DNA from: Diabrotica undecimpunctata
Taxonomy: Eukaryota; Arthropoda; Insecta; Coleoptera; Chrysomelidae
Length of the DNA: 64,000 bases
Direction of reading: 5' to 3'
NCBI RefSeq assembly: GCF_040954645.1
Contig: NC_092809.1
Coordinates: 131,677,914-131,741,913 of the forward strand
How positions within the stretch are numbered: position 1 is the stretch's first letter; each line of letters begins with the position of its first letter. Made by a program: the position numbers and the translations under genes. The notes beneath the pieces were generated by a model. The model saw only the letters and a list, made by a program, of their open reading frames with translations. It did no database searches and was not told the origin of the DNA. This document shows positions 1,474-40,438 of this stretch, piece after piece.

Positions 1474-1509
1474 TCTTGATAATAATTGTGAAGACAATTG
1501 AAAGCTCGA
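1474..1509 (+). ncRNA. hammerhead-ribozyme-like motif 1 (downstream of PLE copy 1)
   Basis: Core TTGATAA at 1476-1482, one extra T, then a perfect 6-bp stem II AATTGT/ACAATT with loop GAAG, then GAAA at 1500-1503, a one-pair stem III (GC), then TC as the expected cleavage dinucleotide. Stem I is weak here (CT/GA). C3 and G8 of the canonical core are U and A. PLE terminal repeats are known to carry hammerheads. That this one cleaves is inference. Confidence 0.42.
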
Positions 1510-1530
1510 TATAAAAAAAATAGTTAACCA

Positions 1531-1550
1531 ACAGCCCTTTTATTGACTCC
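1531..1550 (+). repeat. 20-bp element-end sequence shared with 61747-61767
   Basis: CAACAGCCCTTTTATTGAC occurs here and again near 61749 on the same strand. It lies just after the hammerhead-like motif, where a PLE terminal repeat would end. Only this short block is clearly shared, so the element identity of the second copy is uncertain. Confidence 0.5.
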
Positions 1551-3690
1551 AACCCATCCAAAACAGTTATATATATTTATATCACATTTCACGAATTAAA
1601 ACTTTAAAAATAAAACAAGTAATAGTAAAAAAAAGCAAAAAGTGAGGTCTAACTTCTTCAGTTTATCAGTTGTTAAACTGTTACAAAAGAAATGTACAGG
1701 CCAATCCTTCCAAAACACTCATACCCAATAAATTCTTGGTGAATCACAAAGTTGGGCATTTCTTATACTTTGTGACAAACCGTAAAATAAAAAGGAGGTT
1801 GTTAAAAGTCAATTAGTAAGTAAAAATTTCCACCTTATCTACCGCCCACCGAATCAATGTTTACTAGTAACTTCGCATTGTAGAACCAAAATGAATAAAA
1901 AAACCTTTTAATTATTTAATAATTTAACACTTTAACTGGCAGTATAGGTATGTTGTTTTTTATCTCATCATTTGGAAAATAATTAAACTTTTTCATCAAG
2001 CTGCTCTGCGTTATGTAGCGGTAGGTACTGCCAGGTGGATTTTCTCTAAATGGCAAAACATGAAACTTTTATAATTCATTAATAGAAGCTAGTTAAACTT
2101 GCGAAAATCAGCATTTTCGAGCCACATACCAAAGGGAAAACGATATCCCCAGCAGATTATAAAACAAAGTATTTAATGAAACAAAAAAACATAAAGAATG
2201 TTTTCCCAGAATAATCGACAATATCCATCGATGAGAAGAGAAACATGGGAAAGATTTATTTTCTTAGTCACAAAAATTAATCTTTTTCGCTTTTCAAAAA
2301 CGCCAAAGTATTCTCCCTAATTTTTAAGTAGCTATGCATTTTAAATATTTTAAAGGGCTAAATGAGACCTGTCTACCTGAGAAATGAGGGTCAACAGACC
2401 TAATAGAATTTTTAAGTAGCGGACCATTTGCCATCCATATTTATGTCCATTATAAATTAAAAGGTGAAAAAAGGTATCAGCCGAGACACCTGGGCACATT
2501 TTTTATAGCCTTCGCCTACTGTTTCTTTCGGGACGTTTTATTAAAGGGAGGTAGCGACTTAAGATTTTCTTATTACAAAAGTGACAGAATATATTCGATA
2601 GAAAGGGAATGAATGAAAATCATACCAAAACAACTATAGCTGCTTTAATTAAAAAATACTTTCAAGCAAAAAATTTAAGTTTAAATGAAGTGTTCATTTG
2701 GTCATGTTCAATGTCATGCAAATATGGAGAAACATTTCTCCAATATTTAAAGAAGATTCTTTACTAAAAAAGAACTGAAAGATACAATTCACAAATAATT
2801 CCTATAAAGACCGCGTAAGAATGAACACGAAAAATTTTCCAGATATTCTTTTTAAGTTTTTCTCGTATATTGTACACAACAATCGCATTTATTTATAGAT
2901 AATTAATATGCAGTACTATCACACTCATCAAAATGTCACTCAATCAAAATAATGATCAACATGTATAATTAACCACACTATTATCGATGATAAATTCTTT
3001 TCGATAGAAAAACCATGAAGATAACAGTATTGCTACTTACACTCATTTAAATAACAGACAATGCATTTATAATGGCGTATTATAATAATACCGTGGCGTG
3101 GCCGCACGAATGTAATATGACCACAAGATATACTTTTTATATCGGCCAGTAGCTTACAAACATAAATAAAAGAGGTTAATTGATTGGTCTAAACGTGATA
3201 GCTTCTGAATCTAATCAAACAATAACCATCACAGATACAACAATTAAAATTCAGACGTCAAAACACGTAACTCAAAGGATTAAAAATGAAAAGACCGGAA
3301 AAGGAGGCAATCTTGAATACTAATGACATAAGACGGTTCGGAAACATTAAAAAAGAAATCAAAAAGAAATACTTTTACACAACAGTTGGCGATAATAAAT
3401 ACTTGTGTATTATTTTCATCAACAACATGAGACAAAAAGACAATGAAAGCTGATAGAATGTCTACTATTGCTGACAACAGTATTACTAACACATCCTACA
3501 GACAAAACTGTTTTTAAGACTATTTTTGTAATTTTCTGCATTTATGTCATCATGATAATCTTCCGATTTGGCACCTGTTGTAAAAATCAAAAGAGCATTC
3601 AGTTTTGCCATTTGCCCACCACCGTGTATCATAAATCATAACCAACCTACTTCTCTTTGAAATGTTTTTGAATAAACTTTTACTTCCATC
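1551..3690. other. No gene recognised
   Basis: AT-rich DNA with many stops in all frames. The short open frames have no recognisable family. I see no inverted ends, tandem array or convincing exon here. Confidence 0.6.
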
Positions 3691-3700
3691 ATTTGACCAA

Positions 3701-4010
3701 CTATTCGGCGTTTGGCGTACGTTGAGTTCTGTAGTACTTAATATTGTCTAAATACTTAAGACGTAGAGTAAGAATGTCATTTCGTTCCATTAATAAACGT
3801 CGATTATCTTTCGTTTTCTTCCATTTAAATCCCAAACCTTTTACAATCCTGGAGAGAAAACTCACACTTACAGTCCACTCATACGCTTCTTTAAGCCTTT
3901 TCTGCAAAAGTTTCAATTATACACGACAACCTCCTCATGAAGATGGTAAATTGTATTTCTAATGAACTGTTTGTCATAGTGCCTTAAGTCTGTCACAGTT
4001 GCTTTCCGCT
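3701..4010 (-). pseudogene. IS630/Tc1-type (DDE_3) transposase N-terminal relic, copy 1
   Basis: Read on the minus strand this gives a helix-turn-helix segment (SVSFLSRIVKGLGFKWKKT) followed by DNRRLLMERNDI and LKYLDNIKYYR. That pattern precedes the first catalytic Asp in insect IS630-like transposases. A preceding piece (ATVTDLRHYDKQFIRNTIY) lies in another frame across ~3917-4010. The catalytic half is absent. A related and more decayed fragment in the same orientation lies at 13740-13990, so this is a repeated family. Clearly inactive. Confidence 0.68.
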
Positions 4011-4047
4011 TAGCAGGTGTTGTAGCTGCAAATTCTGTACCATACCT

Positions 4048-4340
4048 AGTGATGTTGGGCGTTTCAATGCGAGACAAGATCCCAAACCGTCAGCCACGAC
4101 GAAGCTCAGGAGTGGCTGAAGCCGTAGAGAGAATAGCAACACTGAAGTGGAACTGGGCAGATCACGTTGCTTGAATAACAGATAACAAATGGACAAAGCG
4201 GATACTGGAATGGAGACCAACAGAGAACAGATGATGCCTATTGAAGCAGACACCAACACGTTGGACTGACGATCTAAAACGTTGCCATAGGAATTTGGGT
4301 GCAATAGGCACAAGATCGAAACAGTCCGGGTAGATTATGG
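4048..4340 (+). pseudogene. LINE (RTE-like) C-terminal tail relic
   Basis: The plus strand reads MLGVSMRDKIPN, then RIATLKWNWADHVA, a stop, then KWTKRILEWRPTENR and TRWTDDLKR. This is the usual C-terminal tail of arthropod RTE-type LINE polyproteins (W-x-W-A-G-H-x-A-R ... RP-TRW-DD). It has in-frame stops and lacks RT and endonuclease domains. It abuts the DDE relic at 3701-4010, so the two are separate insertions or a rearrangement. Confidence 0.7.
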
Positions 4341-4449
4341 GCGCGGTCGTTCTTAGAGGTGAGAAATGTAATGAAGAAAAGATACTAAACAACAAAGAAA
4401 GAAATTAAGGAAGAGAACAACTCTTCAAAAAAGAAAGGACGCCACTTAT

Positions 4450-4692
4450 TTAAAAGTTTGAATCCAAAAAAAATCACAGAAATGGAATGCAAATATCATT
4501 ATAATAAAACAGATAAAATTCGCTATATCAACTATATTCATAAATATTAAAATCATAATATATCTTTCTTTAATGGATTAAGTAAATCTTAAAAGTTTAA
4601 AATATGCAAAAGAACAAATACAATTTACCGTTTAGTTAATCCACCTTGGGTTAAACATGTTTAAGCTTGAGACTGTACAAGAATATTAAGTA
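4450..4692. repeat. Interspersed repeat, left half, split by an RTE insertion
   Basis: The block ending in TTTACCGTTTAGTTAATC ... AAACATGTTTAA resembles 38090-38200 (TTTACTGTTTAGTTAATC ... AAACATGTTTAA). After the RTE insertion the repeat seems to resume at 7782 (ACATTAAATATTAA), as it does uninterrupted at ~38192-38290. The element class is unknown. Confidence 0.55.
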
Positions 4693-4700
4693 ACATTAAA

Positions 4701-4706
<6 letters not shown>
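4693..4706. repeat. Target-site duplication, left copy
   Basis: ACATTAAATATTAA here is identical to 7782-7795. The two copies bracket the RTE-like LINE exactly. Confidence 0.85.

Positions 4707-4761
<55 letters not shown>
4707..4761. repeat. (TA)n tail of the RTE-like LINE
   Basis: About 55 bp of pure TA lies between the left TSD and the LINE 3' end (the LINE is on the minus strand). RTE-type LINEs end in short tandem repeats rather than poly(A), so this is probably the element's own tail, possibly expanded. Confidence 0.75.
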
Positions 4762-4762
<1 letters not shown>

Positions 4763-4770
4763 CGGGGATC

Positions 4771-6478
4771 CTACAGCTTCTGCCGCTTCCCGCATTTCGA
4801 TCGCCATCTTTTTCTATCTCTCCAGGTGTCTTCATCAATGGCTATGTCTTTCATGGTTTCCATAACACCTTGTATCCAAGACTTGGCTGGTCTTCCTCGT
4901 TTCCTTCTATTACTTGGATTGTATTCCATAACTCTTTTTGGCCATCTGTTGTCGTCCATCCTCTGTACGTGTCCATACCATATTAACTGTCCATTTTCTA
5001 TTCTTTCAGAAGTTGTGTTTTTCTTCTAATTTCAGAATTAGGTATACGTTCTACTCTTGATATACGGCAAGCTCTTCTCAGGTAGTCCATTTCAACCGTG
5101 TCAACTTTTTTCTTTCCTTTTACTGTCATTTGCCAACATTCTGCTCCATATGTAAGAATGGGCTCTACAATTACTTTGTAGATAGTCATTTTAGTTCTCA
5201 TAGTAGCTTTGTTGGATCAAAGTATCGAATTCAGAATTTGAACACTCTTCCTGCCTTGTTGCACTCTATAGTCTATATCTCGTTCCGTTGTTCCTTTACT
5301 GCAGATAATACTTCCCAAATATTTGTATTCGTAGCACCTTTTCATTTGTCTAATTTCCAAATCCGGGTCTTCGTCTTCACTGCCTATTCGCATATATTCT
5401 GTTTTAGACATATTTAGACTCATCCCTTATTTTTCGTATTCATCTTTGAGCTTTCTAAGCATATAATCTGCATCTTCTTCACAGCTTGCAATTAGTACTT
5501 GATCATCTGCAAAGAACAGCGTTGTCAGATAATGGTTGTTAAGCTTCAACCCCATTCCCGCACATTTTTGTCTCCACTGGTGCAGTGCTTCTTGGATATA
5601 TATTTTGAATAGGGTGGGGGAAAGACAACATCCTTGTCTCAAGCCTTTCGTTACTGTAAATACCCTTGAGAAGTATTTCCTGTTTTTACAGTGCTTTGAG
5701 GACATTTATAGATGTTCAGTATTGCTTTTAGATATGTTTTACTAAGGTCCGTTTTCGTCAAGACACTAAATAAGAGTTTTAAAGGAACTGTATCATAAGC
5801 CTTATCCAGATCTATAAATACCAGATGCGTAGGGAGGTTTCGAGCTGTTCGTTTTTCAATTACTTGTTGAAGGGTAAATGTGTTGTCCACGCACGATCTT
5901 CCTGCTCTGAAGCCGCTTTGTTCTTCAATTTCTTTATACTCCTCTTATATTCTTCTTTTCAATATACGACCATATAACCTTCCCAGCGAGCTAGTTACGC
6001 TAATGCCTCTATAATTTCCGCATTCTTTTCTGTCTCCCTTTTTATAAATGGGGCTAATGTGGGCCAAATTCCAATCGTCTGGAATCGTTTGGCCTTCAAT
6101 TAAGCATTTATTAAAAATATTCACTAAGCTTTCCAAAAGAGCATCCGGTCCATGTTTCACCAACTCGATGGGAATGTCTCCAGGCCCGGGTGTTTTTCCA
6201 TTTTTCATTTGTTTCAATTCTTTTTTCAGTTCTTCTTTGTTTATCTTATGCACCTCTGAGTTTCCTGTCATTAAGATATGGTCAGGTCTTTCCATAAATT
6301 CGTGCCTACTTTCTGTTAATAGCGTTTCGTAATATTTTTCCCACTTTTTATTTTGAATCTGGTTTATATTTCCCTCATCTTTTCTTTCTTTTCTAATACT
6401 TTTTATGAATTTCCAAGCTTGTGTCACTTTGGTTCCTCCTAAGCATCGGTCCATCTCTTCGCATTTTTCTTCCCACAT
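4771..6478 (-). pseudogene. RTE-like reverse transcriptase and C-terminal region
   Basis: Minus-strand reading in order: KNGKTPGPGDIPIE and IYKKGDRKECGNYRGI (RT domains 0-2), FIDLDKAYDTVP (catalytic Asp block A), GLRQGCCLSPTLFKIYI (block B), LFFADDQVLIAS (FADD catalytic box), YKYLGSIICSKG, LTYGAECWQ, and the tail MDDNRWPKRVMEY ... RGRPAKSW. The catalytic FADD is intact. The chain is broken across several frames, for example between 5890 and 5945, near 5425, and near 5210. The product would copy the element's RNA at a nicked chromosomal site. It resembles LINE RTs often annotated as endonuclease-reverse transcriptase. Confidence 0.85.
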
Positions 6479-7640
6479 TTCGTTTTTTCTTTTAGTGACT
6501 TCCTTCTTTGCTTCCCTGTTGAGTCTGCTGTAAATTTTACGGTCTTCTGAGTCTTTCGTGGATAGCCATGTTTGATAAGCTTTTTTTTGTCTTTAATTAA
6601 TTTTCCTACTTCTTCGTTCCACCACTCAGGATTTTTTCTTTTGTCAGCTTGTTCGTACCCCAATGCCTCTTTGGCCGCCTGATGAATGCAATTTTTTATA
6701 TCTTGACATTCTTTTTCGGCTGTTTCTCTTCGAGTTAAGTGAGTTAGTTTTGAGGCTAGTCTAAGTTTGTAGAGGAATTGTACTGATTCTTGTTTGAGGC
6801 TATCAATATTATATCTTATCTTTGTGGAAGCTGCTCCCTTCTCCTGTTCAATTTTGTTCTTGTTTACTTTTCTGTAGTGTATGGTTATTTTTGCGACCAC
6901 CATATAGTGGTCAGATCCGCATTCGGCACCACGATACACCTTTACGTCATTTTTTTGGAGCCTTTTGTTTTCTGGTTGGATGAGATAGTCGATTATAGAT
7001 TTTATCTTTTTCTTTGGTTGTTCCCAGGTAAATTTATGTATATCTTTGTGCTGATAAAATCCATTCATTATTTTAAGCTTTAATGTTTCACAAAGATCAA
7101 TGAGTCGCTCTCCGTTGTTGTTTATTTTGTCTTCACCATATCTTCCTACCACATTGTCTTATAATTTTTTGCCTACCCGAGCATTGAAATCTCCTAATAG
7201 GCATATTTCTTTGGATCGGTTTACATGGGTCAACACGTCAAGCAATTTGTCATAGAATTCATCCTTAACTTTTGTATCAGAATCGTCACTAGGAGCATAA
7301 TATACTCCTATTATAACTATCGTCTCCCCATGTTTCTCAAGATCCATCATAATGATATGCTCGTCTATTTCTTCCTAACTCTTGATATTGTTTTTGAGTT
7401 TTGTATGCACGGATATAGACACACCTCTTTTTGCTCTTAATGATTTTTCAACTCCACTGTATAAATAATGAATATAGTCGTTCTTGATTTCATTTCCCTT
7501 TCCTTTCTTTTTTGTTTCTGTAAGAACGCATATGTCTATTTGTTGTCGTTCTAATTCTTGAAAAACTTAAGTTTCCTTGGTTCTTAGACCTTGTACATTC
7601 CATGTGGCCAATCTCATAGTCCTTTTTCGTAGCAGTCGTC
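6439..7640 (-). pseudogene. RTE-like LINE endonuclease (AP-endonuclease fold)
   Basis: The minus-strand frame starts at MRLATWNVQGLR (7617 downwards), the classic first motif of LINE endonucleases. It continues through TETKKKGKGN, IIGVYYAPSDD, LLGDFNARVG (catalytic Asn/Asp), FTWEQPKKKIKSIIDYL and GSDHYMVVAKI (catalytic Asp-His). In-frame stops occur near 7375 and 7160, and a frame change near 7565. The domain would nick the target to prime reverse transcription. All main motifs are still readable, so the copy is not ancient. Confidence 0.85.
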
Positions 7641-7781
7641 GTCTTTTGTTTCCGTCCTTATTCCGAGGCTCTTGATCGCAATTTTTAGCAAATAACTTTT
7701 TTCTAGAAGAAGGGGTGCTGGCCCATCGTTCAAACCCCCAGACTTGGAGGACCAGGATTTGTGAAGAGTATGTAGTAAATG

Positions 7782-7795
7782 ACATTAAATATTAA
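7782..7795. repeat. Target-site duplication, right copy
   Basis: Identical to 4693-4706 (ACATTAAATATTAA). It marks the 5' end of the minus-strand LINE. Confidence 0.85.
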
Positions 7796-9690
7796 ACAAT
7801 AATAAAAAATAATGAAATGTGCACTGTTTTAATATGAAATTTTGAGCATTGTTTTTTTTTGCTTTTTGTATTTGTAATTTTCTTAAGATGTAACGATTAC
7901 ACTATCAAAAAGAATTAAAATACTGTTATAAAATAATACCTCAATCAACTATGGGAGCTTATGGTCTATGCTTCGCCTAGCTCAGTCTCTTAAGTGTAAA
8001 TCCGTCTTGTCTTAAACTATGAATTAAACAATGAAAATTCAGTTGGTAACAAATAAAAGAATGAATTAACTAATTATATTTATTTAGCATAAAGCAAAAT
8101 AATGATACTTAGTTTGCACAAGCAAACCCTGTCTATAGCTTTACAATAAAATGAAATGATACTTATGGCATCGATGGGTTGCTTGCTTCTGTATAGTATG
8201 TTGTTGCCTCCAGATTATGTGAGTAGATCTTAGGTGTTTGCCCTTTGAGTGGTCTTGAAGACAGCTACAGTTTAGTTGGTTGGTTTTAAATGTGGTTAAT
8301 CCATCGTTTTATTTAATAAACTATCCCATAGACCCAAAGAGATTTCTGCAGACCATAAAAAATGAACTTTATTTCATATTTCATTCTTTAATTAATTTCA
8401 ACTACATTTAAACTACTGAAATAGTGTGGACTTAAGACAAAAGTTGTGACTACAATGAAGTATATCACAGATGCCATAGAACATATGTCTATGATGGAAT
8501 TAGCTCTTCTGTCAAAATAGAACAGAATATTTAGTTTACCGGACAGAAAGAGAGAGAGCGCCAACTGTTTTTTGAAGAAAAAATGGTAAAAAAAGAAACT
8601 GAAGGTTAAGGAATTGATAAATTAATAAAAAAATTAAAATAAAATAATTATTTAAATATAAATTAATAAAGATGGAACGTTTATAACGTTACAAAGAAAT
8701 AACTTCACTTCAATAATATTTACGTGTGTTCACAGGCAATTAAAAGAATTTTTGAAGCCAAGTAATCTTGTCCTGATATCTAATTTGTTTGTATATATTT
8801 TACTGTATTTATTTTATTGAATGATTTGCATTTGAAATGAGCTTTTTGTATACAGCGAATTGCAGAACAATTGAATTACTATAAATTTCTTTGAGTCGCG
8901 CAATTTCTCTATGATTACGTCTTTGCCGTCTCCATCACTTAATAGATAGGAAAATGGCGAAGAATGTTCACAACTTTGTCTTTACATAATATAACATAAA
9001 TCCTATTTTATCATCAATTAAATATTCGTTTACCATCCTTCTCTCAGATGTAACCTTAGCTCCTGTCAAGTCGTAACGTTAAGAAAAAATAACTTGCAAG
9101 AAACATCCTAGTCTTTGTTTACATGATTTATATGTTTACTAAGAACCGCACAGCTGTGTATTACGCTAATCACAAATCACAATTATCGTAGAAAACAGAC
9201 ACAGAAAATAATGTTCTCAAACATAAAATGAACGTCGAGTAATTAAAAAAATCGCCAGCAATTATGTAAAATGCTTATTATTTCATCAAGTCTTCCTGTA
9301 ATTAAATCAGAATTTGTTGTGTCGCAAATTTATTGCACTTTGTACATTTTACAGATTTATTATGAAATATTTTGATGTTTTTTAATAACATCATGTCACT
9401 GAGTTAATAAAGGAAATTATGTTACAACAATAAGTTTTCGACAGATGTATTTCAACAGTGTCTTAATATTTGGGAATAAATAATAAAAATCAGAATAAGC
9501 AAAATCTGGCCAATAGGGAGGATGTTTCACAATTCATATCCGATTTTTGTCTGTCTATTTCATATAGGTACTGCCCCATTAAATACTTTTTGATGGACGC
9601 CTACATTCTTAGTTAATCTTATTTTTCCTTAGATATTTTGTCCTATATTTGCTGTGTTTCTTCTTTAAGCACCGTCTTGTTTAAGAAGGT
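7796..9690. other. No gene recognised
   Basis: AT-rich, stop-dense DNA. The first ~130 bases may be the right half of the interspersed repeat split by the LINE. I see no further coding motif. Confidence 0.55.
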
Positions 9691-9717
9691 TGGATATCAG
9701 GTCGAGGACACTCGACA

Positions 9718-9826
9718 CTAAGGAGTAAGCAGATTGAGACCTCAGTGCCGTTTGACGGTTCTTGTATTTATACGGAACAAGATACTGGTATGTCAAGAGT
9801 GAGGGGAGTAAGCAGATTGAGACCCC
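9718..9826 (+). repeat. Direct repeat, two copies ~83 bp apart
   Basis: The phrase GAGTAAGCAGATTGAGACC occurs at about 9723 and again near 9806, each followed by different sequence. It immediately precedes hammerhead-like motif 2, so it may belong to a PLE terminal repeat. Confidence 0.5.
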
Positions 9827-9848
9827 AAATTCGAATAGAACCATATCC

Positions 9849-9888
9849 CTCTTGATAATGGCTACAAAATGTGTGCCGAAACGTCGAG
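9849..9888 (+). ncRNA. hammerhead-ribozyme-like motif 2 (upstream of PLE copy 2)
   Basis: Stem I is CTC/GAG (9849-9851 with 9886-9888). Core TTGATAA spans 9852-9858, then one extra T, stem II GGC/GCC, GAAA at 9878-9881, a one-pair stem III (CG) and the expected cleavage dinucleotide TC. As in motifs 1, 3 and 4, C3 and G8 are replaced by U and A. Stem II is only three pairs with a long loop. Function is inferred from fold and position. Confidence 0.45.
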
Positions 9889-9929
9889 TTTTAAATTCTC
9901 AACGCGGTTCTTTCCGAGAACTTGGTAAT

Positions 9930-10420
<491 letters not shown>

Positions 10421-10803: not shown

Positions 10804-10841
10804 GTCTTGAAAAAGGAATAAAACAATTCGGAAAGCTAGAC
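10804..10841 (+). ncRNA. hammerhead-ribozyme-like motif 3 (downstream of PLE copy 2)
   Basis: Stem I GTC/GAC (10804-10806 with 10839-10841), core TTGAAAA (10807-10813), one extra A, stem II GAAT/ATTC with a G-G mismatch at its base, GAAA (10831-10834), one-pair stem III (GC) and TA at the expected cleavage site. It has the same U3/A8 core as motifs 1, 2 and 4, and the same distance class (a few hundred bases) from the GIY-YIG stop. Confidence 0.42.

Positions 10842-10948: not shown

Positions 10949-10950
<2 letters not shown>

Positions 10951-11021
<71 letters not shown>
10951..11021. repeat. (TA)n microsatellite, ~71 bp
   Basis: Pure TA run about 110 bp after hammerhead-like motif 3. With 9934-10026 it brackets PLE copy 2 on both sides. 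Confidence 0.97.
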
Positions 11022-11024
<3 letters not shown>

Positions 11025-11990
11025 ATAATTTCTATAGATATATATTATTAAAGGCCTTTACACGTTTTCTCAATCACAAATTATTGGAAATAACTTTTGA
11101 AAAAATGAAAGAAAATTATAAATGTTATAAGGTATAAATAAAAAAAGATTAGATAATATCATACATAAAAATAACCATGTATTGTAATTATATCATCACT
11201 CGAAATAATTGCAGTTGATATAAGCATAGCTCTTGCTTAGAAAATATTCAGATTAATCGTTCATCTGATTACTAAGATTAAGTGGATCTAAGCACGCGGG
11301 GATTTGAATAGTAAAGAATATTAAATCAATCAATCATAATTCATGTAGTTAAATTTAATTAATTATTTTCTCTTGTAATCGATTTCAATCACGTTGATAG
11401 CGAATTCTAGGAAGTACTTAGGTAGGAAAGTCCAATAAATCATATGTATTATATATAACTTAATTGCATGTGATTAGAAACCACATCATCTACATATTTA
11501 AAGAGGGTAAGTTAATGATTATTACATATTACATATAAAAATCAATCAATTGTAAAAGTATATGCAACTGCCGGTGAACCACTAACAACAGATATTTTGA
11601 GAGTTTTCTCAACGATACGACTTTTCTACAGTTCACTATAACAATATAAAAATATTGTTCTTTACTATTTCTGGCATTCGGTTTCTTAATTTTCTGCGCG
11701 AATTACACTAATTCAAGTTAGCTGTGAATTCGAGAAAAACGTTAAATTTTTTACTATGTACTTTTTAAAAGTTCTTTAGGATGGACAACCTATACGGTAT
11801 TTTCGTTTAATTGACCTCACATTGATTGACACCTCCCATTACAACCTCCCGAAATAACCCCAAAAGAAAATCTCTTCCCGAGGATACTCGGTAGGAATAT
11901 TAGGATAATAGAGAGCGTTTATGGAAACCTGCAATTAGGGAGGCCAAACCAACATTTGGAAAATAAAGGGAGAGAATGAGGACTGTCATC
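11022..11990. other. No gene recognised
   Basis: AT-rich, stop-dense DNA without a recognisable element end or exon. Confidence 0.55.
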
Positions 11991-29409: not shown

Positions 29410-32400
29410 TTTCATATTTCTACACATTGACTTTGATTATTTCTTTCATTCTGATTTGCTTACAAATTTTTAGAGATAAAATTTCATGTGTACCTTTGTT
29501 AATAATTCATATTATGTTGTAATGCGAACTTCTTGATCTATTTTTAAATAATAAGAAAATTAGAAGTTTCACTTTTCACTTTCAATGTTTATAAAGAGAT
29601 TTGCAATTAGGTCAGCTTTGTAAGACGTATAATTTAAAGTAAACTGTGAAAGTTTCCAAAATTTTGTTTAATCTTAGATCCTTTCAAATTCTCTGATATT
29701 CTATAAATTGTAAGTGTTGGAAAAACGTTTATTTTAAAGAGGTTTTATTTTCGTATCATCCGCTGTACTCATTGCGTATACATATATTTTGCAGCCGATG
29801 CATTTTTCTTCTCTGAGCTCGAGTGAGTCACATTTTTATATAGGTTTACAATGGGTGGTCCTTTGTATTTTCTTGGCAAATTATCAAATCGTGGTGTAAA
29901 TAAGATGAGCTGGCGGATGTTTCCCCATCAACTGATGACGCACTAACCGAAAATTTATTTTAAAGTTAGGAATAAAACTGATGAAAATAATTAAATGCAG
30001 CCAAAGGAAACGATTATAAATTTAATCAATACAATGTTTATATATTTAGCATATTCGTGCGTTTATGTAAGAATTATCTTTATCTACGCATTTCAGTAGA
30101 AAATGTGACATCAAAGATAACAAGAAAGCTCATATGAATCATATAAAAATAAATAGAAATTGTTAAATTGTTAAGAAATAGAAAAAATGTAGTTTGAGTT
30201 TATATATTTACTCTTTATAATTTATTTCGCATCAAGAAAGGAAAGGCTGAAAACAAGCTGAATTTTGTTGAGAATCTCAATTTCGAGACGACCTCCAAAA
30301 GAAGCAAAAAAGTTTGCCGCTTCTCGTATGAAGGGGGGGGGGGGAAGAAAACATAGATTTACCAGAATCTGTACACCCTAGAAAAAAAATGTTTCAAAGC
30401 AAGTACTTTTTGTGTAGAACGAACAACCGTTTACTCGAATCGAGTGAACTGTACTTGAAGCGACCGGCGATTTTAAATGTCAGTTACTCGCGCGAAATCA
30501 ATTATTTAAATAAAATTCTCAACCTAAACATATACCCAGCCTGAGTAATTTTAATACTCTTCACAGAATTATCAACTAATCTGCTTCCGGGTTTGGACAA
30601 TGCCTTTTCTCTACGACACGTGTGTGAATCCATCTCAATCTTTAGCTACACGATTACACGAGTACTATATTCAAAATACAGTTTTCTGGAATAGAAGTAG
30701 GAATTTTTTTAAAGAATAGTGGTTTTTCAAACAACATGGTAGTAGAAGTAGCTTCAGTGTACTTTTTTGACACCAGCAGTAGCTGTGAATATCAGCTCGA
30801 CTCGGTGAGAATCTTTTTTGGATTGGATATAAAAAAGAGGTTATGTAAGAAACTGCAATTGACTCCAGAGTCTAGGTGTAGCTTGCAGAGCTCGAGTAGG
30901 ATGGGCTCCCAGAATCTAGATGAGTCTAGGAGATGCAACGGAAGACTGCCCTCCTGACTTGGAATCCACTCATATTTATACATCGGGTGTACGGCTTGTT
31001 TGTGGAGATGATGAAATTTCCAAGTCCTGGGAGCGTCCAATGGCACGTTGCAGATTGGTGTCAGCCACTATCCCAACAATCCTTTCTTTTCCCCTTTGTT
31101 TCTCTACCCCTTTTTCTCTGAGCAGGAGTTACACCCTGAAAAGTATTCGTTGTTAAAATTTCAGAGCTTAGCGGTATTGAAAATTCCCTGCTCACCCCTT
31201 GGTAATGTATTCATTAGACATCCCAAAAAACTCGCGATCACTGCGAATAGATACATAGCTTACTTCTGAGCTTTGCACACGGACAAGAAGGGATCAGTTT
31301 CTCGATCCTGTTGCACACTTGACCGGTCAGAATCAAAGTGGCGTAAGTACAGTTTTGTTGGTTTTGAGACATAGCAGGCTTTCTTAACATGATTACTTTT
31401 TTTCTTGGGCGCCTTCTCTTTACTTCATTACTTCGGATCAAACCATACTGAATCAAAAATTGATTTCTTGAAAAATTGATTAAGGTTGGTTGACTCTGCA
31501 ATGAGAGTTGATCGACTGTCTGTAGATTCAGATTCCGTATCTAAAGAACTTATATACGATACGAAAGAATTTTGTGGTGTTCAATTTTGTCCATAAAACA
31601 ATGTTTTTCATTCCCATTGCTATTAACATTGTAATCAGGATCTCTGTGAATATCATCTGTCAATATTCCACAATCAGTGTCACTTGAAATTTAAAATCTG
31701 TTATTAAGTTTTAGTTCATAGTTACTCGAAAACAGAGCCTCAAACAAATACAATGAAAATAACTCACTGATGTTGCTATTATTTATTTAATTATCACCGA
31801 AGAAATTAAGAACATTATATTTGGTTCGTAGTAGCGCTTTAGAAATGTGATAGATGTTTTTTAATAATATACGTTACAACTGATACTCTTCCGAATTGAT
31901 TCCACTGTTTATTTAAACACATGTATAAAACAAAATTTAATAATGTGTTCGTAAATACTCCATTGTTGTTATCTGATAATCTGACCTATATACTTCCCAT
32001 TACGATCACCACAATTAGTTAATTTATCGCCAGAGAAACAGATGTTAATAAAAAAACGCCTCAGATTAAGTAGTTAATGGTCATTGATAGGCTTGAGGTA
32101 ATTTTAATACAATGCTTTGTGTAAAACATACAGTTTTTCTTTATTTTCTAATTGTCTGCAACCTATTAAATTTGAGAAGTGACCAAATGCAAGACAACAT
32201 GATCCACATATTTCTTAAGTGAACTGTTCTAAAAACAGCGATCACTCGCTATATTAAACGCAGAAACCAGATGTTAACCAAATTAATATTAACGGCATTC
32301 TTTCGTTTGTCTCTCACACGAATCCAGCTACTCTAGTTAAAAATAATTTACTTTTAATTATCGTTTTATGTGTTCAATTTAATTTTAAATCCAAGCAGAA

Positions 32401-32690
32401 ATAATTAAAAGACAGGGAAGAAATTCAAGAGTATATTTAGAACGGAGAGAAGTCAGTTTAACTGCATTTTTCTTGTAGACGTTGATAAATGCGATAAGTA
32501 AATGATTATATTATGAGTAGATAAACTACTTAGTCGATGTAAGAGAAATGTTACTGCACTTCGAAATTACAGAAATATGAAAGTTCTGTTCCACGTTTCT
32601 GTCTGGAGGCTGTAGCAAGAGATTACTTTTGTTTTTGGTAATAATTGTCGTGTATAGGACAATGTCAAAATCATCTATTTAGGTTGATAT
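29407..32690. other. No gene recognised, one repeat piece and a G12 run inside
   Basis: Mostly AT-rich DNA. It holds a run of twelve G at 30333-30344, the repeat at 30246-30430, and several unremarkable open frames around 30736-31500 that match no family I know. Confidence 0.5.
30246..30430 (+). repeat. Interspersed repeat, also at 55978-56215
   Basis: AACAAGCTGAATTTTGTTGAG, GATTTACCAGAATCTGTAC and TTTTTGTGTAGAACGAAC are found in the same order at 55978-56215. The class is unknown and there are no coding motifs. Confidence 0.62.
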
Positions 32691-32691
32691 A

Positions 32692-34709
32692 CAGGGTGGC
32701 GCACCGAAAACGAAACAGATGCATTTACTGGCAGATGATTCCTTTTTAAAAAAAACGCTTGGACCCGTCAATTTTGTTATCGAGGGGGAAACAAAATTGG
32801 CATAAAATCACATTAACATTTGCAGCCCCCTAAGCGGGGGTGGCACCATCCCTAAAATCTTAAATGGAAAGGGGGGTCGAATGATCCATCATTTAAAAGA
32901 TCTTTCAACGCCCTTTACAATGATGTAAAATTCATGTACTTCAATTCAGTAGTTTTGGAGATTTATTGATTTAAAGTTTAAATACATCATCGTAAGAGGA
33001 GATCAATACATAGCAGCAAAGTTGTTAAAAAATAAAGAATGAACTGACCTGTCAGCCGAGTAAATGTTGAAAATGACCACCATTACTTTCCATGCAATAA
33101 TAAAGATTTTGCTGAAAACGTTGCCGGACATTTTGCAATATTTGAGGAGTAATTTGATGGCACTCATTCACAATTCTTTGTCGTAAATCTTCTAAGGATG
33201 TTGGCTGAGTAGCATAGATTTTGCTTTTTAAGTAACCCCACAAAAAGAAATCCAAAGGTGATAAATCTGGCGATCTTGGGGGCCATTCAACGGCACCTCT
33301 TCTACCAATCCATTGACCTGGAAAGGTCTGATCTAAATAATGCCGAACTCTTAATGCGTAATGTGGTGGGGCACCATCCTGTTGGAACATCAACATATTC
33401 TCAAAGTATCGACCATCATTCTGATTTTCAATTACATCTGTTAGCGCAGGATCTATGGCATTTTGCAGTAATTCCAAATACATTTCACCAGTCAAATTTC
33501 CAGGTAAGAAAAAAGGACCAACCAAATGATCGCCAAAAATGCCAGCCCAAACATTAAATTTTTGTGGCTGCTGTGTGTGTACCTCATGGTAAATTCTGGG
33601 ATTAGAGTCCGACCAATATCGACAATTATGACGATTTACTTCGCCATTTAAAAAAAGGAACATTCGTCGGAAAAGCAAATGTTAAATAAAAATTGTTCAT
33701 CGTTTGTAATTCGTTCACTCATAACTTCACAAAATTCTAATCGCTTATCAAAATCGTCTTCATTAAGTTCTTGTACAAGGTGAATTTTATACGGATGAAA
33801 ATTATGGGCCTTTAGAATCCGTTGGATAGTACGTCGACTAACACTACACGAAGTTTGCAATTTGCGGGTACTTAATGTAGGATCTACAATAACTTGCCCT
33901 AAAACCCCCACTTCTGTTGCTTCGTTCCTTATAGGATTTTCAATATTACGTTTTTTATTGGCGACTGATCCAGTTTCTCGAAATTTAGCTACAAGTTCTA
34001 GAACATATTTTCGGTGCACATTATTGTTCTCATGTCGTTCATTAAAAATTTGTGCTGTTCTATTAGCGCACTGATTATTTCCGAAAAATATTTCAATAAT
34101 TTCAACCATTTCTGCCGTGGAATATACCATGGTTAATTTATGTATAAAGCAATAAATGATATTTTAACAACAAAGATTGGTCAAATCAATCGCAAACTAA
34201 TGTACTATTTCCTATTTAAAATAAGTAGGTGGCATTCTCTACTTATCTTTCTTCAAGAAACAACTTTTTTTGTCTCAAAGGACACTTCAATTGCTATTTT
34301 TATTATTAATAAACCATGGGCGTAGTAAATAAAAGCATTTACTTATCAAGAAAATGCTTTTACTCAAATTTCTTCTGAAAGAAGTACAAACTAATTTGAT
34401 GTACCTATTAGAGTCTACTTTAAACTTTAAATCAATAAATCTCCAAAACTACTGAATTGAATACATGAATTTTACATCATTATAAAGGGAGTTGAAAGAC
34501 CTTTCAAATAATGGATCATTCGACCCCCCTTTTCATTTAAGATTTTAGGGATGATGCCACCCCCGCTTCAGGGGCTGCAAATGTTAAAGTGATTTTATGC
34601 CAATTTTGTGTCCCCCTCGAAAACAAAATCGACGGGTCCGAGCGTTTTTTTCAAAAAAGGAATCATCTGCCAGTAAATGCCTCTGTTTCGTTTTCGGTGC
34701 GCCACACTG
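32692..34709 (-). mobile_element. DD41D-type Tc1/mariner superfamily transposon (copy A), near intact
   Basis: A 2.02-kb element flanked by TA. The ends are long inverted repeats of ~290 bp (32692-~32983 and ~34419-34709), starting CAGGGTGGCGCACCGAAAAC on the left and CAGTGTGGCGCACCGAAAAC on the right. The interior codes a two-part transposase on the minus strand. The inverted ends are collinear with only scattered differences. Confidence 0.92.
33052..34130 (-). pseudogene. DD41D transposase (copy A), broken by one base
   Basis: The first frame, 34130-33648, starts MVYSTAEMVEIIEIFF, has FRETGSVANKKR and the helix-turn-helix VSRRTIQRILKAHNFHPYKI, and ends at FSDECSFF. The second frame resumes at NGEVNRHNCRYW and carries FNVWAGIFGDHLVGPFFLPG, MFQQDGAPPHYALRVR and RSPDLSPLDFFLWGYLK. 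Catalytic residues are Asp (SDE), Asp (QQDG) and Asp (SPLD), with 41 residues between the last two, hence DD41D. The break is at a run of seven T in coding sense (33650-33656); one more T would join the frames. It could be real or a sequencing slip. No other stop is seen. Confidence 0.88.
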
Positions 34710-35511
34710 TATAATGTATAATGATGTATAAACATCAAGTTTTTGGAACTTGGGTAATTATTGATATATAAATATATCCTTTTTACTTATTGTTTCTTAC
34801 ATTACACATTGTAGTCGTCTGATTTGATGATATAAATAAATGTAACGACCGCATTCGATTTTTAAACTGATTATAATTAAATTATCTTTTTAATTCATAC
34901 CATGAATAATTTATGAATAGACCTTTCTCAAGCTCAGTGAATGTGGTAGGTATCTAGGCTGTTTCGAATTAAATTAAACAAGAGATAAGGCCTTTTTGTT
35001 AACATTTTTTTATCTAATCGTAAGACGGTTGACTACATTAATCAAATCCCTCTCGACAGTTTCAGCTTCTGTGTATTTTACTGTCATATATAATTCTATT
35101 TACTTGTTCTCTGTGTTTAATTAATGATTACAAGGGTATAATTTAGTAGTAAATATTCATTATTTAATGTATTTACAATTATACAGGATGTTATGTAAAA
35201 AATTCTATTAATAATGCACACACATACGCAAGTACAGATGCTGCAGTTGTTTTTACTTCTTCTGTGGGGGGTCTGCCTATTATATTTCTTCTTTTACACT
35301 TTCTGCTGTGTTACCCTTATTTTTCTCCACTATCTCCTTTCATTATAGATTTCCCTTTCCTTTCTATGCTTTTTCTCTAAACTATTCTTATGTCTTCCTG
35401 TTTTTTTCCATTTTATGGCCGATCTGTGTGTTGATCTTTTATCGTCTGGGATGCTTATCCCTATTCAATATACTATAACATCCAATTATTCGCACTTTCA
35501 TTTGAGTGATT
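34710..35511. other. No gene recognised
   Basis: AT-rich spacer. The last ~250 bases are pyrimidine-rich and may be diverged sequence of the neighbouring LINE tail. Confidence 0.5.
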
Positions 35512-36238
35512 TCATTTTCTTCTTCTTTTTCCTTTTTATAAGCAATTCTGCTTGTTCATTGGCAAATTTTGCTTATGTGGTTATTCCATTATTTTTTTCT
35601 ATTTTGTGTCCATTCATTTATACACTATATGTTATATTTTCTTCTAATGTCTGCACTTCTTTTTCGATCTCTCAGCGCATTTCCTATAATTCTTCTCAGT
35701 ACTCTCCTCTCTGCCATTTCCATCTGGTTGGTTCTTTGCTGATTACTATTATTTTAGTTTTCTGAGATGAGATTGTCATATTAAATTCTTTTGCTCTTAT
35801 GTTAAATCTGTGGACCAGTCTTTGCAGACTATCTTCATTTTGGGCTATGAATATTGCGTCGTCTGCGTAACAGAGTATTTTTATTTCTTTGTTTCCCATT
35901 TTGTGTCTTCTTCCTTTGTTAACGCTTTTGATAATTTCATCCATGATTAAATTGAAGAGCATGGGGCTCAATGAATCCCCTTGTCTTATTCCGCTGCCTA
36001 TTTCTATAGGTTCTGTAAGTTGTCCATCTATTCTGACTTCCATTTTGTTGTTTTGGTACATGTTTTCGATAGTTTTTATAATGTTTAGGGGAACTTCTCT
36101 ATTATACAGAAGATAGATTACATCTTTGAGTCTTACTCTGTGAAACACTTTCTTTGGGTCAATCAGACACAAAAATGCTGGTCTATTATATTCTAGTGAT
36201 TTCTCAATAATTTGTTTTATAGCGAATATTGATTTCAT
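35512..36238 (-). pseudogene. RTE-like LINE: RT and 3' end, with internal deletion
   Basis: The minus strand reads KSIFAIKQIIEKSLEYNRPAF, LIDPKKVFHRV (the catalytic-block A Asp is present but the usual F-KAFD is altered), GSGIRQGDSLSPMLFNLIMDE and ILCYADDAIFIAQNEDSL (YADD intact), then RFNIRAKEFNMTISSQKTK, ending in frame at ~35696. From 35690 to 35512 the sequence matches 47090-47360, the 3' end of the same LINE type, with a deletion in between. It ends in an AGAAGAAGA run. No endonuclease is present. Confidence 0.8.
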
Positions 36239-36249
36239 TTTAGTACTAA

Positions 36250-36640
36250 AAATTTAAGATCCCATTTGTTGGTATTTGTATTCTTTAGTATCCTAAAGTC
36301 AATGTCATGTTTCCATCAATCTTTAAATCTTCTTCGACACAATTTTTGTGTTCAGTACTAATTTTCAGACTCTAATTATTTAGTTATTTCACTAATTTTC
36401 TTACCAAATATATAATATCGTTAATGTTTTCTGCTAAAATAATTCACTGATCGTCAGCGAATGGTAGAGTAGTAATAAACTCCTCCCCACTTTGAACTCC
36501 CATTTTTAATTACTTGCACCGATGTTTCAGAGCTGAGTTAAGATAAATCTTAAAGAGTGTGGGAGAAAGACAGCATAATTGCCCAAACCCTTGAAAACTT
36601 GAAAGTATTCTGAATATGGTTGTCATATCATATAAGAAAC
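36250..36640 (-). pseudogene. Second LINE RT relic, same family as 4771-6478
   Basis: The minus strand reads CCLSPTLFKIYLNSALKHRCK, a stop, KMGVQSGEEFITTLPFADDQ, a stop, and IILAENINDIIYLVRKL. This parallels QGCCLSPTLFKIYIQEALH ... LFFADDQVLIAS in the 4.8-6.5 kb LINE, and is older and more broken. Confidence 0.65.
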
Positions 36641-38885
36641 ATAAAAACGGTAGTAACTAACCTGTGATTAACTGTGTTGAAAATAAAAAAAACATGCAAT
36701 TAAACAAAAAATTTTATTAACAATTACGGTAACATTATAATTTTGCTTATAGGGAGTTAAAAGGGGGACTGAACAATCACTTGGCTTGAAGATAGAGTAA
36801 GCAAATAAATTGAAACGTTTGCGAACGCCTACTCATGTTTTGGTTAAAGAGCAAGGTCGTGGATAACGATTCTTTTGGGAGGGGGGGAGACTGGAAGAAC
36901 TAGCTACGAAAAAGAAATCAAAAATACTCACAGTGACGTGGGCAATACTAAACAAGAAGATTTCTAAACTATTTAAAATTAGGACGCCGTTTAAAAAAAA
37001 TCCTCTTGCTGCTTAGAAGGAAAGGTTTTTCTTTCCTAAAAAATTTTAAGGGTGAATATCTTTTTGAAAGAAATATATTTTTTAAACTTCCAGTTTAAAA
37101 AGAAAAATTACATATTTATTTTACATTACAATAAAACTTACATTACAATATAAACATTACAATAAAACTTAATATCAAAGATTATCAAAGGTTAATTTTA
37201 TTTAAAAGAAAAAACTTATTTTTTTTATAACTCTTTGAATTGACATGAGAGCAAATCTTATTATATTAACGATGAATGTTTATTTAGAAAACTAAAGAAA
37301 CTAAAAGATTTAGAAAACACTACTTGCTTCACTGGCTAATTATTTCTTTAAAAATTATTAAAAGTTTGTTACCTTAGATTTGAATACAAAAACACTGTCC
37401 CACTAACTTCAAAACAATCCGTTCCGGCCCATGGGAGACATGCTGAACTTGGGAGATGGAAATCTTGGGAGAAATAAAATCAAATGCCACAACTGGACTT
37501 CAAATTATCCCGGATGATAACAATCTCTGATTCCTTAAAATCGGCTGCTTATCTTCCATTTAAAATCATGTCAGCTTACTTAGCCCTCAGGACGCTGTTA
37601 TCAAATCCGTTGACACAGGATACAGTCCCAACAAACGATAATTAACTCATATTACAAAGATTGCACATGGCATTTTGACCTTAAATCACCTTCTTCACAA
37701 CAAAACTCATGGAATTAAGCGAAACTTCGCCGGTTTTTCCAAAACTTCACTATAACGATGTTTTTCCGTTCAGACCCTAAATTGTTCGAATTCGAATTCT
37801 CGATGACAAAATTCGGACTTCCACAATAAAAACGTCCGCCTCTTACGGCGCCCCATCGTGAAGTGGCATCTTCCTTCCAAAATCATTCTCTTGTCAGCAT
37901 ACATTTTACACCAACCTAAGTGGAAAAATTATTGTTTATTTTCTGCGTAAATATCTAGGCGGAATCAAGATCAATCGAAAGAGCAATTTGTTTATTATAA
38001 ACAGACTCCAAAAATGTTTTATGAATCTCAGAGACGCAAAAAGATTAAGAATTTTTTTCGGTGTTTTATTATATACGGGGTGAAACGAAAATGCTACAAA
38101 ATACGCAAAAAAGCAAAACATTTACTGTTTAGTTAATCTATTTTAAACATGTTTAAAATAGATAAGTTCAAAATGGAGACAGCATAAAAATAACATTAAA
38201 TATTTAATAATGAATATTAAAATACACACTATAACAGTATAAAACAAAAGATTTTAAATATTAAATTTGTATCACATAACTCAATTTTGGATTAACTGGA
38301 TGGTGGTCTCGGCACCAGCCGAATCTTGAATAAAAGGAGGCCTTCGTCCACACAGAGACCCAAAAAAAGCCTCCAAATTAGGATGATTGTCTCTAATTAG
38401 GGCGAACTAGGAAGCGAGAAGCGTCAAATTAAGACCAAAAGGACTTCTATATTAGGATAGCAGAAAATAAAAATGATTTAAAAAGCTTTTTTATAGAAAA
38501 ATATTTAAATAGATAAGGTAACGTTACCTAACGTTTTCTAGGTGGCCAGAATAAACACTTTACTTGACCCAACTCTCGTCTTTGAATATTTAGAAACAAA
38601 ACGTAAAGGAACAGAATCGGTATCTTTAACGGATTATGTAAAAAATAATTATTATTAGGGATAATAGGCTATTGATTAGGTATATCCAAAAAAAGGGACT
38701 AAAAGGAATTACAACGTTAAAGGGTTTTATAGTTTAATATGGTCAATGGACCGCCAAATATGAAAAATCCGCCGAGTGTTACCACTTAAAGGGGTGCGTT
38801 TTTGCAATTTTGAATTATATGCAATTTTCGTACATATACATTTACAGAAAAGTTGTTCAAAATTAAATTTCCTATCAAAATGTCA
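36641..38885. other. No gene recognised
   Basis: The stretch 37380-37930 is less AT-rich than its surroundings and could be an unrecognised element or host sequence. A piece of the interspersed repeat of 4450-4706 lies at 38090-38290. No coding family was found. Confidence 0.45.
38090..38290. repeat. Interspersed repeat, uninterrupted copy of 4590-4692/7782-7830
   Basis: ACGCAAAAAAGCAAAACATTTACTG..., GTTTAGTTAATC, AAACATGTTTAAAA and AACATTAAATATT follow in the same order as around the RTE insertion site. Confidence 0.55.
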
Positions 38886-38889
38886 CTTG

Positions 38890-39127
38890 TCAGAAATAAT
38901 TTTTTTTGGTAAAAATATATTCAAAAACCAAGCAAAAAACACGAAAACACGGTATACATGGTGTATACAAACTTAAATGTGGCGACTGCCCAAAAACTTG
39001 TGAAACTGGCAGAACTTTCAACAAACAGATAGCCGAACACAAAAGGATCTTCAATAATAAAAAAAAAACAGATTCTAAGTACGCACTTCACCTGCAAGAC
39101 CATAATCATTCTTTTAATGACCAATTT
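38890..39127 (+). pseudogene. Penelope-like element (copy 3): GIY-YIG fragment
   Basis: KTKQKTRKHGIHGVYKLKCGDCPK, CETGRTFNKQIAEHKRIF, KKTDSKYALHLQDHNHSFNDQF. This is the GVYK--C-DCP--YIG-TGR-F--R--EH layout of PLE-type GIY-YIG nucleases, with the YIG part deleted (CPKTCETGR). It belongs to a different PLE lineage from copies 1 and 2. A Jockey-type LINE relic follows, then hammerhead-like motif 4. Confidence 0.72.
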
Positions 39128-39263
39128 TAAATTCGAGCAAATCTGGCATGCTGGACCGGTTAAGAATCTACTGAACATCGGCTTGCTGTTTCCATTCGTT
39201 AGACTTATGCATTCATATGTCACTCAACGTAAAATCACTACATTTTAGTGAAAAAATTCTATA

Positions 39264-40050
39264 GCAGGAGTGCCACAAGGTTCCGTGTTGGCACCAATAC
39301 TATACGCAATATACAACAGCGACTTCCCTAATCCACGTAACACAAGCACACTTACTTTACTTTACGCAGATGACACTGCTCTTGTAACAACATCTCGAGA
39401 TGCAGATGTCCTCTGTAGGTTTGCGTAAAATCACATTGACCAGATCGATAGATGGTGCGGGAGATGGAGAGTAAGACCTAAAGCAAATAAAACACAAATA
39501 ATTCCCTTTAGACATCCCAATCACAGCGGTAGCATCATTCACAACGTAGCCGAAAAATCGACCTTAGACTATGGGGGGATCAACTCCAGCTCCGTAACCA
39601 GATCAAATACCTGGGTGCCGTATTCAAAGAGACACTACACTGGAGGTCTGATCTGGCTGCAACCCGTAACAGGGTAAGGAGAAGAGTCGGTCTACTCAAC
39701 GCTCTATATGGTAGATTTGGATGCACACATTCACGTACACTCATATATGCATACAAGACGTACATCAGGCCCGTGATTGAATATAGAGCTAATATATATG
39801 CCATGTTCAGTCGCGACCTTACACAACAACTGCTGCGATTGGAAAGGGGAATCCTGCGTAAAGTAAACTACGCCTCCGCCCTCTTACATCAACTATCGAA
39901 CATATAGCCCATAAATGAAAGGCTCTCCTCACTGAGCAGGAGTTATACGATCAAAACCAACCGAGGCCAAAACTTCAGAGCCCAAACATCATCAAAACTA
40001 CCTGCTCATCCATTGCACAATTATACCTGTCTCTAGGGAGGTAACAGCCA
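39264..40050 (+). pseudogene. Jockey-like LINE reverse transcriptase relic
   Basis: AGVPQGSVLAPILYAIYNSDFP, then LTLLYADDTALVTTSRDAD (YADD intact), a stop, IDQIDRWCGRWRV, KANKTQIIPF. After a frame change near 39570 come NQIKYLGAVFKETLHWRSDL, RRRVGLLNALYGR, YKTYIRPVIEYRANI and LERGILRKVNYAS. GVPQGSVL-P-LY and the KYLGV--D--L-W block are typical of Jockey. The upstream RT and the endonuclease are absent. Confidence 0.8.
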
Positions 40051-40398
40051 CAGCTGCCCTCACCGCAACTCACATTTTTATCTCATTTTATATATAAACC
40101 CACTCATTCATATCAGTAATTCACTAATATATTAACAATTTCTGAAAAGGACCGTTTTAGCTTAAATGACCTTTCCCCTCCGACCACCCTGAACATCTAC
40201 CTCCTCCGCAGGAACAACATCCACCGATGAAAACCACCAGTGAGACATAACACAGCGATCCAGAGCCGACACCCAACAACAAAATAACAAACCACGTTCT
40301 GAAGAGGTGAAGACACCTAAAACAGGATCAACAGAAACACACCAAAGAAAGATAAACCAATCAGAGACAGAACAACACGACAATGGAGTAAAAAATAG
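40051..40398. other. Probable 3' untranslated tail of the Jockey-like relic or PLE tail
   Basis: CA/AC-rich, A-rich on the plus strand and different in texture from its surroundings. No coding family recognised. Confidence 0.4.
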
Positions 40399-40438
40399 AT
40401 CACTTGAGAAAGGCACTCTGCCAAACAATTGTAGTGAT
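40399..40438 (+). ncRNA. hammerhead-ribozyme-like motif 4 (downstream of PLE copy 3)
   Basis: Stem I ATCAC/GTGAT is five perfect pairs (40399-40403 with 40434-40438). Core TTGAGAA spans 40404-40410, one extra A, then stem II GGC/GCC with loop ACTCT. Next is AAA where GAAA is expected (G lost), then the self-complementary stem III CAATTG and TA at the expected cleavage site. The core shows the same U3/A8 change as motifs 1-3. The missing G should disable this copy. Confidence 0.42.

What the first reader, a model, noticed from the sequence alone, without database searches (positions are those of the whole stretch)
1474..40438. Four hammerhead-like folds beside Penelope relics share a U3-A8 core in place of C3-G8
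At 1476, 9852, 10807 and 40404 the sequence reads TTGANAA, one extra base, stem II, (G)AAA, a minimal self-complementary stem III, TC or TA, then a G that pairs with the C just before the core. Stem II and stem I are built from different bases in each copy (AATTGT/ACAATT, GGC/GCC, GAAT/ATTC; ATCAC/GTGAT, CTC/GAG, GTC/GAC), so pairing is kept while sequence changes. Bases 3 and 8 form a Watson-Crick pair in the known hammerhead structure, and here both are changed together. This could be a natural hammerhead variant class. The constant extra base after A9 is also unusual.
Basis: partly seen in the sequence, partly recalled or inferred. Interest (0 to 1): 0.87.

Follow-up and report, generated by a model that had tools for sequence, protein, structure and literature searches.

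The report
Retrotransposon ribozymes with a swapped pair
An animal-like genome carries well over a thousand copies of a jumping-gene motif that looks like a known RNA-cutting element (a hammerhead ribozyme) with one inner base pair exchanged for another; the exchange itself was already known from a few other hammerheads, but here it is fixed in a family that looks recently active.

Summary
Site 9852 is a decayed copy of a young Penelope-like (PLE) retroelement. Its tandem units are about 2,684 bp; one intact unit (L022) encodes an 893-aa RT/GIY-YIG protein. Each unit junction seen carries a minimal type I hammerhead motif with a U3-A8 core. One fixed frame genome-wide (1.74 Gb): C3-G8 3,220, U3-A8 1,582, C3-A8 109, U3-G8 94. 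So U3-A8 is a family state, not decay, and canonical motifs coexist with it. Sites 1476, 10807 and 40404 are weaker and unproven: the covariance model gives 1476 E=0.011 behind an apparent junk hit and does not list the other two. The "extra base" is not special to this core. In the coding family it is the U of the AUG start codon (A9-U-G); canonical copies and the Anolis element PAc, whose ribozyme cleaves when protein is added, have it too. The unit's UGA stop is U4-G5-A6 of the next core. U3/A8 covariation was already reported in natural hammerheads (PMC3088659), so this is a new variant of a known kind. Cleavage was not tested.

The parts
9849..9888 (+). U3-A8 minimal type I hammerhead motif: stem I CTC 9849-9851 / GAG 9886-9888; core TTGATAA 9852-9858; extra T 9859; stem II GGC 9860-9862 / GCC 9875-9877; GAAACGT 9878-9884; predicted cut after C9885
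   Evidence: sequence; CM hit E 4e-9; 1,267 exact copies of the GGC..GCC form genome-wide
9709..10026 (+). Truncated copy of the young PLE family (end of ORF, hammerhead, start of next ORF), ending in (AT)n at 9934-10026
   Evidence: blastn 84% to the L022 tandem unit and tblastn to its ORF ends; TRF
59221..59263 (+).
   Evidence: E 5e-10; relatives or look-alikes L036 (two), L020, L023
1472..1511 (+). Weak hammerhead-like site: core TTGATAA at 1476, 6-bp stem II, GAAAGCTC, stem I only 2 bp
   Evidence: CM E 0.011
2..1030 (+). PLE relic: RT fragment (2-349 etc.) and GIY-YIG region (551-1030)
   Evidence: tblastn with PLE proteins; ORFs
10804..10841 (+). Weak hammerhead-like site (core at 10807), stem I GTC/GAC, stem II GAAT/ATTC, two extra bases and an extra G before GAAA; lies between a GIY-YIG-like relic (about 10028-10417, by eye) and a TA repeat (10951-11045)
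   Evidence: not listed by the CM
40399..40438 (+). Hammerhead-like site (core at 40404) with 5-bp stem I, GGCA/TGCC stem II, palindromic ACAATTGT stem III, but no G12; resembles L043:7819-7859 (+) and L045:8996-9036 (-), whose stem I differs but still pairs
   Evidence: not listed by the CM

Best explanation
The strong window sites (9852, 59225) are copies of repeat-borne minimal type I hammerhead motifs in which the core pair C3-G8 is replaced by U3-A8. In the 9852 family the motif sits at the unit junctions of a tandem PLE (shown in L022-L025). The unit is about 2,684 bp; in L022 the ORF starts at an AUG made of A9, the extra U and G10.1, and stops at a UGA that is U4-G5-A6 of the next motif (shown). 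Inferred: tandem transcripts fold the motif at each junction, probably helped by the element's own protein as in PAc, and cut after C17, giving unit-length RNA. U3-A8 keeps the Watson-Crick pair that positions nucleotide 8. The cut falls 25 nt after the start codon, so cleavage would remove the start codon from the ORF body, and an RNA would serve either as message or as cleaved template.
For: Tandem units with a motif at the junctions and one intact unit, ATG to UGA. Four other copies 97.8-99.7% identical to that unit. RVT_1 and homologues from Anolis and insects. Genome-wide 2x2 for positions 3/8 in one fixed frame: CG 3,220 (control 4), UA 1,582 (control 7), CA 109 (control 2), UG 94 (control 21). 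No canonical core with the GGC..GCC stem (0) against 1,267 U3-A8 copies. Stem II covaries: the 26 distinct 34-nt strings among the first 100 of 3,220 rows pair in 146 of 156 cells, against 33-52% when slid. PAc in PMC11167929 has the same layout, extra U included, cleaves in vitro with protein, and its C3G/G8C double mutant partly restores cleavage; that paper also states that self-cleavage of a PLE hammerhead had been seen at 3-25 mM Mg2+ (passages).
Against: No cleavage data. The copies fall into few lineages, so the 3/8 switch may be one or two events. One U3-G8 repeat exists (42 of the 94 rows). The 59225-type repeat has copies with G3 or A3 against A8 (L039, L035), a C3-A8 site with good stems exists (L027:3505), and a second, apparently PLE, family (L028/L029) lacks a proper stem I. 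The monomer MFE fold of the 9852 family pairs the core with the cut site instead. Rfam calls no hammerhead in the window or in five loci of these families. In PAc no reads at the cut were found and insertion in vitro did not need cleavage.
Confidence: 0.75

Rival explanations
1. The motif is no longer a ribozyme: it is kept as a hairpin that the PLE protein binds to prime reverse transcription, and U3-A8 marks loss of catalysis.
For: Insertions end 49 nt (L014, L019, L020) or about 79 nt (L018, L021) after the predicted cut, i.e. just downstream of the motif (three further copies end elsewhere). PAc insertion in vitro does not need cleavage and no reads at the cut were found. Monomer MFE favours an extended hairpin.
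Against: GAAACGTC, UGA and A9 are kept while stem II changes, and 3 and 8 change together rather than freely (the conserved letters were part of the search patterns, the stem and the 2x2 counts were not). PMC3088659 describes natural U3-A8 hammerheads and cites earlier in vitro activity.
Confidence: 0.2
2. The window sites other than 9852 and 59225 are chance look-alikes in AT-rich DNA.
For: 10807 and 40404 are not listed by the CM and 1476 ranks behind a junk hit. Shuffles give up to 3 descriptor sites per window.
Against: 1476 and 10807 lie between a GIY-YIG relic and a TA-rich stretch, as 9852 lies between PLE coding sequence and an AT repeat. 40404 resembles L043:7819 and L045:9036, with stem I pairing kept by different bases.
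Confidence: 0.4
3. U3-A8 is simply post-insertion decay (two transitions) of canonical copies.
For: C to T and G to A are common changes; single-change states exist.
Against: 1,582 copies with both changes against 109 and 94 with one; a tandem array with an open ORF carries it; the canonical GGC form is absent.
Confidence: 0.03

Closest known systems
Minimal type I hammerheads of Penelope-like elements, e.g. Poseidon_Ac (PAc), PMC11167929
   Same: Motif at the unit junction, 3-bp stem I and GCC-type stem II (read from the printed template), extra U after A9 that makes the AUG, GAAACGUC, cut 25-26 nt after the start codon, ORF with RT and GIY-YIG, an optional 3' tail of about 30 nt
   Different: PAc has C3-G8; the family here has U3-A8 and in L022 its ORF fills the whole unit (stop codon inside the next core), whereas the PAc template has a 126-nt UTR
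Natural U3-A8 hammerheads reported in Perreault et al. 2011, PMC3088659
   Same: C3 and G8 covary to U3 and A8 (section 8)
   Different: Reported as several examples; which elements they lie in was not read here. Here the form is fixed in a high-copy PLE family beside 3,220 canonical motifs in the same genome
Animal retrozymes with canonical type I hammerheads (PMC7229834, passages)
   Same: Type I hammerhead in a retroelement
   Different: Retrozymes are small, non-coding and carry loop-loop contacts; the 9852 family is a coding PLE with a minimal motif

Membership tests
Hammerhead ribozyme, type I | Core C3 U4 G5 A6 N7 G8 A9 ... G12 A13 A14 | tested here: not met
   9852 family reads U3...A8; the other core positions are met. 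Natural U3-A8 exceptions are in print
Hammerhead ribozyme, type I | Three helices around the core with compensatory change | tested here: met
   Stem II: 146 of 156 cells paired in 26 distinct strings from the canonical-core list, slid controls 33-52%; 3/8 pair counts. Stem I of the 9852 family is 3-4 bp. Stem III is only the 4-nt palindrome ACGT and was not tested for covariation
Hammerhead ribozyme, type I | Self-cleavage after H17 | not testable with these tools
   No experiment or RNA reads available
Hammerhead ribozyme, Rfam models | Match to an Rfam hammerhead model | tested here: not met
   No hammerhead match in the window at gathering score, at 9780-9960 up to E 10 or in L022, L023, L024, L028, L029 up to E 10; the last set includes a canonical-core copy (L024:6209), so this also reflects how minimal the motif is
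Penelope-like element | RT plus GIY-YIG in one ORF, tandem units | tested here: met
   893-aa ORF, RVT_1; GIY-YIG motif read by eye in the translation, not called by Pfam; tandem spacing 2,682-2,685 bp; homologues
Penelope-like element | Minimal hammerhead at each unit junction | tested here: met
   Motif at the junctions of the tandem loci L022-L025; statement for PLEs in PMC6155905 (passage)
Retrozyme | Small non-coding unit with canonical type I motif | tested here: not met
   Unit is coding, motif minimal

The most novel reading that the evidence does not exclude
A lineage of PLEs has fixed U3-A8 as a functional core whose lower cleavage rate suits a compressed design in which the same ten bases are the ribozyme core, the stop codon of one unit and the start codon of the next, so that cleavage (which beheads the ORF) and translation are balanced through the 3-8 pair and switched by the element's own protein.
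Probability: 0.25. Interest if true: 0.65.

Novelty: new variant of a known kind. Interest (0 to 1): 0.45.

Why it matters
It gives a natural experiment: the same ribozyme architecture, in one genome, in a C3-G8 and a U3-A8 form, each in well over a thousand copies, with few mixed forms. That makes the old biochemical question of how far the 3-8 pair can change in a working hammerhead directly testable. The overlap of ribozyme core, stop codon and start codon explains the extra base after A9 in this PLE family and in PAc.

Tried and rejected
Viral contigs: TTGANAANGGC..GCCGAAACRT gave 13 loci; their composition and flanks look like prokaryotic chance matches and were not used. PLE protein alignment against viral contigs and genome contigs: no relatives by tblastn. 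Reading position 8 from the N-termini of the 120 listed homologues of 1,539: three pattern matches, two of them hammerhead-like, both at codons that do not tell A8 from G8. Rfam: no help. The first MAFFT alignment A1 misaligned stem I and was dropped. In one search the 3-8 pair is 11 CG and 5 UA by construction, because the rows came from searches for exactly those cores and I had picked 16 strings by eye (11, 5); one search repeats stem II with the 26 distinct 34-nt strings that I found by eye among the first 100 of 3,220 rows (strings of other lengths dropped). Genome-wide tests of sites 1476, 10807 and 40404: none ran; a pattern for the 40404-like family did not complete, nor was the RF00008 genome search. 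The host elements of the canonical-core motifs were not identified. My notebook gave the insertion ends as 57 and 83 nt after the cut; counted again they are 49 and about 79.
Full report
What was checked. A strict descriptor finds 9852, 10807, 40404 and a new site 59225 on the + strand and none on the - strand. Shuffled windows give 0.42 on average and at most 3 (150 shuffles), and the 59 other permutations of the core give at most 2 each. Site 1476 has a good stem II but only 2 bp of stem I. A covariance model built from five sites outside the window plus PAc puts 59225 and 9852 far above background, 1476 at E=0.011 behind an apparent junk hit, and does not list 10807 or 40404. So two sites are strong, one is middling and two rest on shape and place alone.

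The 9852 family. Its GGC..GCC form has 1,267 exact copies in the 1.74-Gb genome, reversed-pattern control 0. Tandem copies lie 2,682-2,685 bp apart (four pairs). In L022 one unit is an open frame of 893 codons from the motif's AUG to the UGA of the next motif, with RVT_1 and, read by eye, a GIY-YIG motif. Copies in L022 (other strand), L025, L024 and L023 are 99.7, 99.3, 99.2 and 97.8% identical to that unit over 2,497-2,685 bp, so the family looks young. The best 120 of 1,539 homologous proteins include insects and lizards; the N-terminus of the Anolis hit P0028 agrees with the PAc template printed in PMC11167929. The window copy is a truncated, diverged piece ending in an AT repeat.

Core, stop and start. 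In L022 the ORF ends at the UGA that is U4-G5-A6 of the next motif, two bases follow (N7, nucleotide 8), and the next AUG is A9, the extra U and G10.1. Canonical copies, CTGATGATG, show the same letters, though their host elements were not identified. PAc has the layout too: its printed template reads CUGAGGAUGCC...GGCGAAACGUC (PMC11167929, methods passage). The extra base is therefore the start-codon U in these coding PLEs. In other repeats it is C or A (59225, 40404), and a canonical copy without it exists (L049:7638).

Do positions 3 and 8 change together? In one frame (NTGATNATGN{8,28}GAAACGTC) the genome holds C3-G8 3,220, U3-A8 1,582, C3-A8 109 and U3-G8 94 (reversed controls 4, 7, 2, 21). 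Of the 94, 41 are one repeated string and one more is its variant (hand count of the full one search list); by eye most other listed mixed rows look like single changes in copies of the large groups, and a TGTAT-stem group is prominent among them. With the GGC stem the canonical core is absent. Anchoring instead on GAAACGTH plus a hairpin in the window, 20 10-kb stretches taken every 10 Mb of contig C1 and the selected loci, with the core free at positions 3 and 8, gives 32 U-A, 3 C-G, no C-A or U-G, and one each of G-A, A-G and G-G; 21 anchors had no such core. Most U-A rows come from loci selected by a U-A pattern. In the window and the 20 stretches alone the tally is U-A 4, C-G 2, G-A 1, A-G 1, G-G 1. 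Copies are not independent events, and the data fit a small number of switches. Against the reading: the looser descriptor shows a C3-A8 site with good stems (L027:3505), the 59225-type repeat has copies with G3 or A3 (L039, L035), and a second, apparently PLE, family (L028, L029) has only 0-1 bp of stem I.

Stem II. The 26 distinct 34-nt strings among the first 100 of 3,220 rows pair in 146 of 156 cells, against 33-52% when slid, with subfamilies such as GCTTATTG/CAATAGGC, GCCCAATG/CATTGGGC and GCATATGG/TATATGC.

Mechanism. In PLEs hammerheads are minimal and sit in the repeated ends (PMC6155905, passages). PAc RNA is cut only when the PAc protein is added, endonuclease mutants do not stop the cut, C3G or G8C abolishes and the double change partly restores it, insertion in vitro does not need it, and no RNA-seq reads at the cut were found (PMC11167929 passages). 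The family here shares the layout, and five of eight copies read end 49 or about 79 nt after the predicted cut, in front of (TA)n or TA-rich DNA (the other three end elsewhere), which recalls the two RT start sites and the 30-40-bp tail described there. The monomer fold of the family favours an extended hairpin that buries the core, which would fit a need for protein or for a dimer. I infer protein-assisted cleavage at unit junctions; because the cut lies 25 nt after the AUG codon, cleavage would behead the ORF. That U3-A8 slows cleavage is a guess.

Known or new. PMC3088659 section 8 (read in full) states that C3 and G8 covary to U3 and A8 in several natural hammerheads and that such pairs had been shown active in vitro before. 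PMC1986816 and the PLE hammerhead paper PMC4209133 are not held and were not read. What I did not see in the listings of four paper searches and the passages read is a PLE family with this core fixed in high copy; that is a limited search. Verdict: new variant of a known kind, moderate interest.

Noticed in passing
G000 contig C1, the first 100 of 1,267 places listed (e.g. L026, L023): Copies of the 9852 family occur as head-to-head pairs pointing away from each other: of 24 neighbour pairs under 4 kb, 19 are -/+, 4 are -/- tandem and 1 is +/-. This would fit reverse transcription from both nicked strands at one target.
   Followed up: partly
L014-L021: Five of eight copies end in TA-rich DNA at two positions 30 nt apart after the hammerhead.
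   Followed up: partly
G000: A repeat TTGATGATGGTTCCAAAAAGACGAAACGTC (41 exact copies) has a U3-G8 core and a short stem II; nature unknown.
   Followed up: no
window 59221-59263; L036:6346-6485: The 59225-type repeat shares a tail (AATTGTGGCTTATTCCCATTTAAA-like) in several copies and occurs as an inverted pair in L036; its host element is unidentified.
   Followed up: no
L035:1478+, L041:3554+, L049:7638-: Canonical-core hammerhead-like sites with other palindromic stem III (ACACGTGT, AACGTT, ATACGTAT) in the 20 sampled genome stretches, so further hammerhead families probably exist here.
   Followed up: no
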